Part shown: piece after piece, positions 9,354 through 45,574 of the stretch
How positions within the stretch are numbered: the first letter of the stretch is position 1
Layout: each line of letters starts with the position of its first letter
NCBI RefSeq assembly: GCF_024228315.1
Contig: NZ_CP100454.1
Coordinates: 868,001 to 932,000, forward strand
Source: Halomarina pelagica
GTDB taxonomy: Archaea > Halobacteriota > Halobacteria > Halobacteriales > Haloarculaceae
Direction: 5' to 3'
Length of the DNA stretch: 64,000 nucleotides
Notes under the pieces: generated by a model
The model's database searches: none
Told to the model about the DNA's origin: nothing
The model's input: only the letters and a program-made list of their open reading frames with translations
Made by a program: the position numbers and the translations under genes

Positions 9354-10078
9354 CCACCTTTTGCTGCGCTCGTTCGCTTCGCTCACTCGCTGGCAAAATC
9401 TGGACCAAAACCCTCGTCACTCCCACCGCCGGACTCGCGGTGCTCGTCCGGCGTGCTCCCGCTCGCCGCCGGCTCGCGGGAACTCCGGTCGCTCCTCGGT
9501 CCGCTCCCTCGCTCACTGCGTTCGCTCGGTCGCGGCGGGGAATCGGAGTGCGACGGTGGAAATCGGGTCCGTCATCGCCGGACTGAATTTTTCGGTGTCG
9601 CCAGCGCGCTCATCGCGAGCGACCAGAGCGAGCGGACACACCGACCCCCCGGCGCTCCCACGAGCCGAATCCGAGCGGGAACACGTCTGATTTGTAGTCC
9701 TCGTCCGGCGGAGAACGTGAAACGCGATCCCCGTGCAGTGTTGCAACGCGCCGCCACTGACCGCGAAGCGTGTCGCTGACAAGCGCGCAGCAATACGGCC
9801 TAGCGAACAGGCGACGCCGCGCCGATGCTCGCGGGGCGTGGCGTCGCACAACCGCGAAGCGCCCCGTGACAAGCGTCAGGTCACGGGGGCCTCTGGTCCC
9901 GCTCTCGGATATAAAGGTACGCGACGGCAGACTATTTTTACCACCGCCGACGCCAGTGCGCTGTCCCGCGAGCGAACGTAGTGAGCGAGCGGACCGACGA
10001 ACCCCCGAAGGGGGTGAGGAGGGTTTTGGTCCAGATTTTGCCAGCGGGCGGCGAAGCCGCCCGCGCAGCAAAAGGTGG
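9354..10078. repeat. 725-base island bounded by ~60-base inverted repeats
   Basis: The left arm (9354-9415) runs from CCACCTTTTGCTGCGC to TGGCAAAATCTGGACC. The right arm (10019-10078) is its near-exact reverse complement. No credible protein is encoded between them. The interior holds GC-rich palindromic tracts of the CTCGTTCGCTTCGCTCAC type, a CCCCCGAAGGGGG hairpin (10002-10014) and, next to the right arm, the promoter-hairpin unit listed separately. The left 130 bases match the 45 kb island in inverted orientation. It looks like a non-autonomous mobile element or a nested pair of them. Confidence 0.75.
9799..9935 (-). ncRNA. Candidate structured RNA unit, copy 1
   Basis: Read on the minus strand, CTTTATATC (near 9909-9916) is a haloarchaeal TATA-like box, followed by a conserved stretch shared with 45.1-45.2 kb. 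Stem 1 is CCCCGTGAC (9862-9870) pairing with GTCACGGGG (9880-9888). Stem 2 is GCGACGCC (9811-9818) pairing with GGCGTCGC (9840-9847). No open frame is conserved. Transcription is inferred only. Confidence 0.4.
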
Positions 10079-29350: not shown

Positions 29351-29392
29351 GCACCGTCTCTCCCCTCCCTCTCCGCCCCCCAACTCTGCGAA

Positions 29393-29494
29393 CCTTTTTA
29401 TCGGAGGGCGGGACCAGCGTCCCCGTGCGCTGACTCCCGCCACGGGTCGTCCTGCGGTTGCGCGGCACAGCGGCCCGTGGAGCGACCGTGCCGC
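29393..29494 (+). other. T-run followed by pseudoknot-capable sequence
   Basis: CCTTTTTA (29393-29400) can be the oligo-T terminator of the upstream gene or a TATA core. Downstream, CCACGGG (29440-29446) can pair with CCCGTGG (29474-29480), and GCGGCAC (29462-29468) with GTGCCGC (29488-29494). The two stems interlock as an H-type pseudoknot. No open frame fits. Chance is possible in such GC-rich DNA. Confidence 0.3.
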
Positions 29495-29505
29495 CTGTTC
29501 GCCCT

Positions 29506-43673: not shown

Positions 43674-44837
43674 ATGCTCGATTACGTAGAACTCGAAGCC
43701 GACCTCGCGGGGGAGGAGCGGATGATCCGGGACACGGCGCGGGAGTTCGTCGAGGAACAGGTGCGCCCCGGCATCGGCGAGCACTGGATCGAGGGGACGT
43801 TCCCCACCGACCTGATCCCCGAACTGGGCGAGATGGGTTTCTATGCGCCGAATCTGGAGGGCTACGGCCTGCCCGGCGTGAGCGAGACCGCCTACGGCCT
43901 CCTCATGCAGGAACTCGAGGCCTGCGACTCGGGGCTGCGCTCGATGGCCAGCGTCCAGGGCGCGCTCGTGATGTACCCGATCCACGCCTTCGGCTCAGAA
44001 GCGCAGAAGGAGGAGTGGTTGCCGGCGCTCGGTGCGGGCGAGGCGGTGGGCTGTTTCGGCCTCACGGAACCCCAGCACGGCTCGAACCCCACCGCGATGG
44101 AGACGCGCGCCGAGCGCGACGGCGACGGGTACGTGCTGAACGGCTCGAAGACTTGGATCACCAACTCGCCGATCGCGGACGTGGCGATCGTCTGGGCCAG
44201 GGACCGCTCGACCGACGAGACGCCCGTCCGGGGCTTCCTCGTCGAGACGGACCGCGACGGCGTCAGCACGAACGAGATCGAGGAGAAGCTGTCGCTCAGG
44301 GCGTCGATCACGGGGGAGATCGGCCTGAACGACGTCCGCGTCCCCGAGGAGAACGTCCTGCCAGGCGTGAGTGGGATGAAGGGGCCGCTGTCGTGTCTCA
44401 CCCAGGCGCGCTACGGCATCGCCTGGGGGGCGATCGGCGCGGCGCGCGACTGCTTCGAGACGGCGCGGCAGTACGCGCTCGATCGCGACCAGTTCGGCGG
44501 TCCCATCGCCCGCTTCCAGCTCCAGCAGGCGAAGCTCGCGGAGATGGCGACCCAGATCACGACCGCCCAGCTGCTCGCCCACCGCCTCGCCGAGCTGAAG
44601 GAGCGCGGCGACCTCCGCCCGCAGCACGTCTCGATGGCCAAGCGCAACAACGTGCGGATGGCGCGCGACCAGTCGCGGATCGCCCGCGAGATGCTCGGCG
44701 GTAACGGGATCACCGCCGACTACTCGCCGATGCGCCACATGGCCAACCTGGAGACGGTCTACACCTACGAGGGCACCCACGACATTCACACCCTCATCCT
44801 CGGGCAGGATCTGACGGGGATCCCCGCCTTCGAGTGA
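43674..44837 (+). CDS. Acyl-CoA dehydrogenase, glutaryl-CoA dehydrogenase-like
   Basis: 387 residues. FAD-binding GCFGLTEPQHGSNPTAMETRA and the late catalytic Glu in VYTYEGTHDIHTLILGQDLTGIPAF (about 365). LRSMASVQGALVMYPIHAFGSEAQK closely follows the glutaryl-CoA dehydrogenase pattern, including the Arg before SM(A/S)VQ that binds the distal carboxylate. That would make crotonyl-CoA and CO2 from glutaryl-CoA. Electron acceptors (ETF) are not adjacent. Confidence 0.88.
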   Translation: MLDYVELEADLAGEERMIRDTAREFVEEQVRPGIGEHWIEGTFPTDLIPELGEMGFYAPNLEGYGLPGVSETAYGLLMQELEACDSGLRSMASVQGALVMYPIHAFGSEAQKEEWLPALGAGEAVGCFGLTEPQHGSNPTAMETRAERDGDGYVLNGSKTWITNSPIADVAIVWARDRSTDETPVRGFLVETDRDGVSTNEIEEKLSLRASITGEIGLNDVRVPEENVLPGVSGMKGPLSCLTQARYGIAWGAIGAARDCFETARQYALDRDQFGGPIARFQLQQAKLAEMATQITTAQLLAHRLAELKERGDLRPQHVSMAKRNNVRMARDQSRIAREMLGGNGITADYSPMRHMANLETVYTYEGTHDIHTLILGQDLTGIPAFE

Positions 44838-45104
44838 CCGTGACCGTCCGAGGCCGTATGTGTCGGTTTCGTCGGCGTTCCCCGCCGCCGCTCGATAGGC
44901 TCCGCTCGCGTGCGTCACGGAGGACGGCACGAGTCGGCGAGACCCCCCCCGCCGGCGACGAGACGTTCCGCCGCTCTCCTCCTCGTTCGCACCGCTCCGG
45001 GGAACGCTCGCGTCCACCTGCCGGAACACCGAACACCGAACGCACGGCTCGCGGACGTTTTCACCGCCACCGTCGGCGGAGCGACGGCGCGACGTTCGTG
45101 GCGT
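44838..45104. other. Non-coding stretch after the acyl-CoA dehydrogenase
   Basis: 267 GC-rich bases with no supported gene. Open frames on both strands have Arg/Pro/Ser-rich translations. It leads into the repeat unit that starts at 45105. Confidence 0.5.
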
Positions 45105-45235
45105 GCAGGCGACGCCGCGGCGGGATCTGGTTCGCGGGGTGTGGCGTCGCACACTCGCTGAGCGCCCCGCGACGGCTCTCACGTCACACGGACGCTGGTC
45201 CCGTTCTCCGGTATAAACGTACGGACGGTAGACCC
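45105..45235 (-). ncRNA. Candidate structured RNA unit, copy 2
   Basis: On the minus strand, GTTTATACC (TTTATA at 45212-45217) precedes a stretch homologous to the 9.8 kb unit. Stem 1 is GTGACG/CGTCGC, with different pairs from copy 1. Stem 2, GCGACGCC (45109-45116) with GGCGTCGC (45143-45150), is identical in position. An alternative CGCGGGG/CCCCGCG pairing is kept as GGGGCG/CGCCCC in copy 1. Expression is inferred. Confidence 0.4.
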
Positions 45236-45556
45236 GACAGCCACCGCCGGCACCAAGTGCGGCACCCGCGAGTAGCGCGGACAACGCGAACGGCCGGCGT
45301 TACCGGCCGTGAGCGAGTGTAACGAGCGAGCGGAGCGAGCGCGCCGGCATTCCCGCGAGCCGGAGGCGGGCGAGAGCACGCCGGACTCGCGGTGCTCGTC
45401 CGGCAGTGGGAGCGACGAGGGTGGTAGTCCTTCCAGACCCGCGCGGCGGTTCTGGAAGCCTGCGAGACGCGAAGCGTCTCGCAGTGCAGGTTTTGCCAGG
45501 GAGCCGCCGGCGACCGCGAAGCGTGTCGTCGCCATGCGACTGCGGCAAAACGTGGT
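45105..45556 (-). repeat. Dispersed composite element, 45 kb copy
   Basis: Read on the minus strand from 45556, it begins CCACCACGTTTTGCCGCAG, contains CTGGCAAAACCTGCA, then CTCGTCGCTCCCACTGCCGG and GTCCGGCGTGCTC shared with 9416-9470. It ends with the promoter-hairpin unit at 45105-45235. The order of parts equals that of 10078 to 9799 on the minus strand. Inside, CGAGACGCTTCGCGTCTCG is a strong hairpin. It starts 19 bases after the rpl40e stop. Confidence 0.72.
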
Positions 45557-45574
45557 GGTCCAAAAAGTGAGTCG

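What the first reader, a model, noticed from the sequence alone, without database searches (positions are those of the whole stretch)
9799..10078. Dispersed element with a conserved promoter-like box and stems (copies at 9.8 and 45.1 kb)
Seen: two non-coding islands 35 kb apart share, on the minus strand, the same order of parts. These are a CCACC-TTTTGC arm, a TTTATA box, GGGACCAG, and two stems ending GGCGTCGCCTG. Stem 2 (GCGACGCC/GGCGTCGC) is identical. Stem 1 is GTGAC/GTCAC in one copy and GTGACG/CGTCGC in the other, which keeps pairing with different bases. An alternative pairing (GGGGCG/CGCCCC versus CGCGGGG/CCCCGCG) competes with stem 1. Inference: a structured small RNA, possibly with two conformations, carried by a mobile repeat.
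Basis: partly seen in the sequence, partly recalled or inferred. Interest (0 to 1): 0.62.

Follow-up and report, generated by a model that had tools for sequence, protein, structure and literature searches.

The report
Two-codon minigene with RNA pseudoknot
The two look-alike islands are copies of an unrecognised small-RNA gene found in about half of the salt-loving archaea sampled, 55 times in this genome, whose transcript seems to begin with the shortest possible protein-coding message (start, one codon, stop) followed at once by a tightly knotted RNA fold, as if built to catch a ribosome.

Summary
The 9.8 and 45.1 kb islands (and a third at 29389-29502 +) belong to an RNA family absent from Rfam 15: 55 copies in this genome, all on the main chromosome, and hits in 207 of 391 sampled Halobacteria genomes but none outside the order. 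Its conserved fold is an H-type pseudoknot. The GTG...TGA next to it reads as a leaderless two-codon ORF in 136 of 145 distinct members: start (GTG/ATG, rarely ATC), exactly one variable codon, stop (TGA 121, TAA 13, TAG 2). S1 begins 16-17 nt from the start codon, about where the leading edge of an initiating ribosome would lie. The TATA plus CGnGRCCA promoter also drives leaderless protein genes (pilins, secretion ATPase, HerA, Cas4-like, NucS, DinG-like, MinD, TFB) at identical spacing. Best mechanism: a ribosome-engaging minigene RNA, expressed with a pilus/DNA-processing regulon, that holds ribosomes at its 5' end. The architecture is well supported; transcription, translation and ribosome trapping are inferred.

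The parts
9803..9921 (-). RNA gene copy A (promoter to conserved tail), in the intergenic region between amtB (ends 9320, +) and hemL (starts 10121, +)
9910..9921 (-). copy A: BRE/TATA-like promoter CGTACCTTTATA
   Evidence: same spacing as leaderless protein genes
9893..9901 (-). copy A: CGGGACCAG box, about 14 to 10 nt before the start codon
9876..9884 (-). copy A: two-codon minigene GTG ACC TGA
9860..9869 (-). copy A: S1 5' strand TCACGGGGCG
9840..9847 (-). copy A: S2 5' strand GCGACGCC
9829..9838 (-). copy A: S1 3' strand CGCCCCGCGA
9811..9818 (-). copy A: S2 3' strand GGCGTCGC
9803..9810 (-). copy A: conserved tail CTGTTCGC
29389..29502 (+).
45101..45223 (-). RNA gene copy C, tail-to-tail with an acyl-CoA dehydrogenase gene that ends at 44837 (+)
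45212..45223 (-). copy C: BRE/TATA-like promoter CGTACGTTTATA
45195..45203 (-). copy C: CGGGACCAG box
45179..45187 (-). copy C: two-codon minigene GTG ACG TGA
45163..45172 (-). copy C: S1 5' strand TCGCGGGGCG
45143..45150 (-). copy C: S2 5' strand GCGACGCC
45132..45141 (-). copy C: S1 3' strand CACCCCGCGA
45109..45116 (-). copy C: S2 3' strand GGCGTCGC
45101..45108 (-). copy C: tail CTGCACGC

Best explanation
Each copy is a stand-alone gene for a roughly 80-nt RNA. A TATA promoter with a CGnGRCCA box starts the transcript at or next to a GTG/ATG. The RNA therefore opens with a leaderless two-codon ORF (start, one variable codon, stop) and continues, 6-8 nt after the stop, into an H-type pseudoknot (S1 8-12 bp, S2 7-8 bp) and a conserved CUGUUCGC tail. 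The pseudoknot begins 16-17 nt from the start codon, about where the leading edge of a ribosome paused on that codon should lie. Most likely the RNA acts in trans by engaging ribosomes: a ribosome loads on the leaderless start, forms at most a dipeptide, meets the pseudoknot when it tries to translocate, and is held or aborted there. The RNA would thus lower translation, or be protected by the bound ribosome, in cells where the CGnGRCCA regulon (pilus, HerA, nuclease and helicase genes) is on. Shown by sequence: the family, pseudoknot, minigene reading, shared promoter class, and chromosomal, gene-end placement. Inferred: transcription, exact 5' end, translation of the minigene, ribosome holding, and any physiological role. 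Component confidences: architecture 0.95; independent transcription 0.85; minigene translated 0.75; ribosome holding in trans 0.35-0.4.
For: Pseudoknot: close copies (6 double-change pairs against 1.2, 0/500); a structure-blind alignment of 52 diverse members (15 of 18 pairs with double changes, 137 cells against 44 in shuffles, score 0.412 against 0.163, 0/500); the top 12 covarying column pairs of the whole alignment are S1/S2 pairs (APC 41-139 against a null maximum of 26). Minigene: 136 of 145 distinct members read RTG (or ATC)-NNN-stop; codon 2 takes 18 forms; all three stops are used; two further members insert exactly one extra codon and stay in frame. Geometry: TATA to start codon 30-31 nt; S1 starts at +16/+17 in 102 of 127 (range +14 to +19). 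Leaderless start: seven protein genes of this genome with the same box have ATG/GTG at 30-32 nt, as do most genes found with the box in Haloferax and others. Box enrichment over the reversed pattern: 49 to 1 here, 20 to 0 and 19 to 2 in two Haloferax genomes. Regulon content. Distribution. Not a 5' leader: the next gene is convergent in 73 of 92 cases elsewhere and 34 of 46 here. Literature: two-codon minigenes pause ribosomes on the last sense codon and drop peptidyl-tRNA (PMC8708949); spacers of 5-9 nt place stimulator structures at the ribosome's unwinding site (PMC5009743).
Against: No transcript, start-site or ribosome data could be examined, so translation is a reading of the sequence. 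Six members have ATC instead of a start codon yet keep the stop, and four others lack an in-frame stop. Trapping would have to be strong enough to matter, which is unknown. Model searches favour members resembling CGUG..CUGA, which inflates minigene conservation somewhat. S2 and the tail of the 80 named loci were part of the search pattern. The parsed alignment was built on complementarity, so only searches are free of that bias.
Confidence: 0.42

Rival explanations
1. A non-coding structured RNA that acts through a protein partner. The RTG is imposed by the leaderless promoter class, and the immediate stop is a guard that keeps ribosomes from running into and melting the pseudoknot.
For: The promoter class fixes an RTG near +1 in protein genes too. 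An in-frame stop is kept even in six members whose start codon became ATC. L1 GCGGKNGY and the tail CUGUUCGC are unpaired but highly conserved, as for a protein-binding RNA.
Against: A start codon is easily lost by one mutation, yet 130 of 145 keep GTG/ATG. A guard stop need not be exactly the third codon, yet only two members have one more codon.
Confidence: 0.28
2. A cis-acting gene-end element: it is transcribed towards the 3' end of the convergent neighbour and limits read-through or shapes its 3' end.
For: The downstream gene is convergent in 79% of cases elsewhere and 74% here, often 10-60 nt away. Long-lived neighbours include rtcB, TFB, EF-2 and DP1 genes.
Against: The same bias follows if an RNA without a visible terminator must simply avoid reading into promoters. 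Neighbours mostly differ between copies. A cis role does not explain the minigene or the regulon promoter.
Confidence: 0.12
3. A recoding site: the pseudoknot 6-8 nt after the stop drives stop readthrough or frameshifting.
For: Spacer and fold look like recoding stimulators.
Against: L1 and L3 lengths vary freely (10-18 and 5-31 nt), so no downstream reading frame can be conserved; the downstream gene is usually on the other strand.
Confidence: 0.04
4. A mobile repeat (MITE/REP-like) whose structure is a by-product of insertion-sequence ends.
For: 36 close copies in this genome lie among repeat modules.
Against: Chromosome-only, partly syntenic across genera, 1-3 copies in every Haloferax genome examined, no plasmid, phage or virus match, compensatory evolution within copies.
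Confidence: 0.03
5. One reading: an RNA with two alternative conformations (stem 1 against GGGGCG/CGCCCC).
For: In many close copies the 5' strand can pair with the S1 5' strand, with a few compensatory changes.
Against: Divergent members keep the 5' strand constant as a start-codon-stop unit while S1 changes freely.
Confidence: 0.06
6. A trans-encoded guide (omega) RNA for TnpB.
For: 23 TnpB genes over the cut-off in the genome; one lies within 1 kb of a copy.
Against: The other copies are not adjacent to tnpB; omega RNAs overlap the tnpB 3' end and carry a variable guide after the scaffold, whereas here the 3' tail is constant; several TnpB genes are on other contigs where the RNA is absent.
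Confidence: 0.01

Closest known systems
Two-codon minigenes of bacteria and phage (lambda bar minigenes, from memory; mini-ORF mg2 of axe-txe, PMC8708949)
   Same: Start, one sense codon, stop; the last sense codon and stop matter; predicted ribosome pause
   Different: Those are leadered by a Shine-Dalgarno site or lie inside other mRNAs. Here the minigene is leaderless, stands alone, is followed by a conserved pseudoknot, and occurs as 1 to 55 chromosomal genes per genome where present
rancRNA_s194 and other ribosome-associated sRNAs of Haloferax volcanii (PMC6104027, PMC12482152)
   Same: Haloarchaeal small RNAs of about 100 nt found on ribosomes, several without a protein product
   Different: s194 was reported without homologues in other haloarchaea (PMC3956466); none of the published H. 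volcanii sRNAs could be matched to this family here because that genome was not held
H-type pseudoknots that stimulate recoding (PMC5009743)
   Same: Pseudoknot a few nucleotides after the codon in question, at the ribosome's unwinding site
   Different: No conserved downstream reading frame
Ups/Ced DNA-exchange systems of Sulfolobales (PMC11868833, abstract)
   Same: Analogue of the co-promoted gene set: pilus genes together with HerA-like and DNA-processing proteins
   Different: Homology of the whole system was not tested; no minigene RNA is known there
omega RNA of TnpB in haloarchaea (PMC12558985)
   Same: Pseudoknotted RNA, many copies in haloarchaea
   Different: Different position, no variable guide, not at the end of tnpB

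Membership tests
Any Rfam 15 family | Covariance-model score at or above the gathering cut-off | tested here: not met
   no hit at gathering; only chance hits (E 1.7) in the relaxed scan
H-type pseudoknot RNA | Two interlocked helices supported by compensatory changes | tested here: met
   (65 with the stated bias)
Two-codon minigene | Start codon, one sense codon, stop codon conserved as codons | tested here: met
   136/145; TGA/TAA/TAG used; two members with one added codon in frame
Two-codon minigene | Translated; ribosome pausing or peptidyl-tRNA drop-off | not testable with these tools
   needs Ribo-seq or toeprinting
Recoding pseudoknot | Conserved downstream reading frame | tested here: not met
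   L1 and L3 lengths vary in all frames
Haloarchaeal ribosome-associated sRNA (rancRNA) | Physical association with ribosomes | not testable with these tools
   no RNA data
rancRNA_s194 | Same locus or sequence | tested here: inconclusive
   H. volcanii genome not held; s194 reported as not conserved, unlike this family
MITE / mobile repeat | Spread over all replicons, no positional conservation | tested here: not met
MITE / mobile repeat | Terminal inverted repeats and target-site duplications | not tested
   no clear element ends beyond the RNA core; not examined systematically
TnpB omega RNA | Lies at the 3' end of tnpB | tested here: not met
   against positions: one copy within 1 kb, none overlapping
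5' leader / riboswitch | Lies upstream of a co-directional gene | tested here: not met
   the downstream gene is convergent in most cases

The most novel reading that the evidence does not exclude
A new class of stand-alone regulatory genes: leaderless dipeptide messages that use a pseudoknot to clamp the initiating ribosome, present in up to 55 copies so that gene dosage sets the strength of a translational brake, and switched on together with a haloarchaeal pilus/DNA-exchange regulon through a previously unnamed promoter element (CGnGRCCA).
Probability: 0.3. Interest if true: 0.95.

Novelty: categorically new. Interest (0 to 1): 0.84.

Why it matters
Small RNAs of haloarchaea are numerous but reported to be poorly conserved and mechanistically obscure. 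Here is one found in about half of the genera sampled, with a defined fold, an inferred 5' end and a defined promoter class, ready for genetics in Haloferax, where there are only one to three copies. If the minigene is translated, it would be the first conserved gene family known to me whose coding part is a start, one codon and a stop, and would give a clean test of how leaderless initiation by 70S ribosomes deals with a structure at its leading edge. The promoter box by itself defines a regulon of pilus, HerA, nuclease and helicase genes, a concrete lead on how haloarchaea control DNA exchange.

Tried and rejected
Rfam at gathering and relaxed thresholds: nothing. Viral contigs, plasmids, phages: nothing. 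TnpB guide RNA: rejected by position. Base pairing of the conserved unpaired motifs with the genome's own rRNA region: only 6-8 nt matches, as expected by chance. Stem 1 as a conserved helix: rejected. HDV-like ribozyme (topology from memory): rejected, no P3 hairpin between the S2 and S1 strands. A covarying pairing of the GTG region with L1: looked for, none. Published H. volcanii sRNAs (s194, H225.2R, hts10, sRNA_61): could not be mapped because that genome is not among the 15 Haloferax genomes held; kept as leads. A pattern hit in a Rhodobacteraceae MAG (L126) was not confirmed by the model. MFE folding without pseudoknots was uninformative for copy C (z +0.76), as expected for a pseudoknot. 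G-U against A-C counts in the diverse structure-blind alignment were not decisive (41 to 33), because misaligned S1 cells dilute them.

Full report
What is there. The two islands were read directly. One of them, searched against the whole genome from which the window comes (4.6 Mb, 7 contigs; its closest named match is Halomarina halobia), gave 41 matches including itself. Aligning them showed a core of 116-125 nt. A covariance model built from 29 copies (R1) and a second from 80 diverse members (R2) find 55 copies in the genome at E below 1e-4, one of them a third copy in this window at 29389-29502 (+). All 55 lie on the 3.54 Mb contig and none on the remaining 1.06 Mb (P about 6e-7 for random placement).

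The fold. In 29 copies aligned by sequence alone, the alternative pairing (TCGCGGGGCG with CGCCCCGCGA, here S1) and stem 2 (GCGACGCC with GGCGTCGC, here S2) are both nearly perfect: 99.6% of cells paired, six pairs with changes on both sides against 1.2 in shuffles. The order is S1, S2, S1', S2', an H-type pseudoknot. In divergent members the sequence of its 5' strand stays the same while S1 takes many different sequences, so stem 1 is not a conserved helix. In a structure-blind alignment of 52 diverse members, 15 of 18 pseudoknot pairs show changes on both sides, with 137 such cells against 44 in shuffles and a covariation score of 0.412 against 0.163 (0 of 500 shuffles). In a weighted scan of all column pairs, the twelve best are pseudoknot pairs; that alignment was parsed by complementarity, so carry the argument. 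In the close copies G-U pairs outnumber A-C 17 to 2, which favours the strand of the TATA box.

Spread. Sampling 391 genomes of the class gives hits in 207, in 47 of 86 genera. In a sample of 393 genomes of the phylum the 42 genomes with hits are all in the same order. Copy numbers range from 1-3 in all 15 Haloferax genomes to 18 and 55 elsewhere. The main Haloferax copy sits in one gene neighbourhood (archease, rtcB, two small genes, RNA, HAD hydrolase, acyl-CoA dehydrogenase, alaS) in the genomes examined. Other loci are shared across genera: next to or near rtcB in Haloferax, Halobellus, Haloarchaeobius, Halegenticoccus and Halobaculum; next to TFB and RNase HI in Halostella and this genome; next to EF-2 in the four congeners and this genome. 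The family is thus partly inherited in place. Nothing was found in plasmid, phage or viral collections, and the family is not in Rfam 15.

Place in the genome. The RNA is not a 5' leader. The next gene downstream is convergent in 73 of 92 informative cases outside this genome and 34 of 46 in it (p 1e-8 and 0.002). Orthologous Haloferax loci are counted more than once in the first figure, and genes were called with a simple codon-bias rule, so the p-values are indicative.

The minigene. The conserved block next to the promoter reads yGTGmnsTGA. Searching this genome for the promoter box TTYAW-N9-CGNGRCCA gave 49 hits against 1 for the reversed pattern. Most are RNA copies, but several precede protein genes. 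In seven of these the start codon ATG or GTG lies 30-32 nt after the first T of the TATA box, exactly where the GTG of the RNA family lies (30-31 nt). This is the geometry of leaderless transcripts. Read as codons, 136 of 145 distinct family members have a start-like codon (GTG 111, ATG 19, ATC 6), exactly one further codon (18 kinds, mostly CGN or ACN) and a stop (TGA 121, TAA 13, TAG 2). Of the others, two contain one extra in-frame codon (GTG ATC GAG TGA, which the script scored from its ATC; GTG GAG GAG TGA), three are truncated matches, and most of the rest lack the stop. Alternative stops occur in several genera (Haloarcula, Halolamina, Haloprofundus, Halobellus, Halospeciosus, this genus). 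A random third codon would be a stop in about 5% of cases.

Geometry. Counting the start codon as +1, S1 begins at +16 or +17 in 102 of 127 members and between +14 and +19 in all. An initiating ribosome protects roughly to this point (toeprint positions from general knowledge; PMC5009743, gives 5-9 nt as the usual spacer that puts a structure at the unwinding site). A ribosome could therefore sit on the start codon without touching the knot but could not translocate without opening it.

The regulon. The same box precedes protein genes in other haloarchaea: 20 hits against 0 controls in Haloferax marinum and 19 against 2 in a second Haloferax genome, of which only 2-3 are the RNA. Most have a start codon at 30-32 nt. 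The genes include type IV pilin-like proteins (Pilin_N, DUF7283, DUF7382), a type II/IV secretion ATPase, HerA/DUF87, a Cas4-like nuclease, NucS, a DEAD_2/DinG-like helicase, MinD/ParA, a TFB, DUF7310, DUF7857 and DUF3006. This resembles a pilus plus DNA-processing set, as in the damage-induced Ups/Ced systems of Sulfolobales (PMC11868833, abstract). That reading is an inference from gene content; induction conditions are unknown.

Mechanism. The simplest reading that uses every conserved part is a ribosome-engaging RNA: leaderless start, at most one peptide bond, an immediate stop, and a roadblock at the leading edge. Two-codon minigenes in bacteria pause ribosomes on the last sense codon, release peptidyl-tRNA and can be toxic, depending on the second codon; ribosome occupancy also protects the RNA (PMC8708949). 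Haloferax volcanii has abundant small RNAs on ribosomes without detectable products (PMC12482152, PMC6104027), but none could be matched to this family here. The main rival is that the ORF is a guard that stops ribosomes from entering a protein-binding RNA. The strong retention of the start codon speaks for function rather than guarding, but only mutants can decide.

Limits. No expression or ribosome data were available. The start site is inferred from spacing. The 80 named loci were found with a pattern covering S2 and the tail, so their conservation there is partly by selection. Model searches favour members that keep the minigene letters. The literature search covered only open-access papers without supplements, so an earlier mention in a table cannot be excluded.

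Noticed in passing
window 9400-9560 (+), 10000-10078 (-), 45400-45570 (-): A separate dispersed module of this genome, often directly after a stop codon: CCACC-TTTTGC, a variable hairpin, GCAAAA-nCTGGACCAAAACCCTCCTCACC and GC-rich palindromes, flanking many of the recent RNA copies.
   Followed up: partly
L254-L259, L264-L312 (promoter-box loci): A promoter element TTYAW-N9-CGNGRCCA defines a conserved regulon of leaderless genes (pilins, secretion ATPase, HerA, Cas4-like nuclease, NucS, DinG-like helicase, MinD/ParA, TFB) in several haloarchaeal genera.
   Followed up: partly
L257 1000-1060: HerA-like and DUF7382 genes are divergently transcribed from back-to-back copies of this box; the same arrangement occurs in a second Haloferax genome (L304).
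   Followed up: partly
L007/L027 (genome C1:1994381 and 1994665): Two RNA copies lie 284 bp apart; the first lost its 3' half to a repeat module, a possible snapshot of turnover.
   Followed up: no
genome C1:1-434000: No RNA copy in the first 0.43 Mb of the main contig, where several TnpB genes lie; possibly an integrated or low-conservation region.
   Followed up: no
L019, L074, L131, L169 (loop L3): Loop L3 of the pseudoknot sometimes holds an extra hairpin; L093 and L092 carry extra sequence in loop L1.
   Followed up: no
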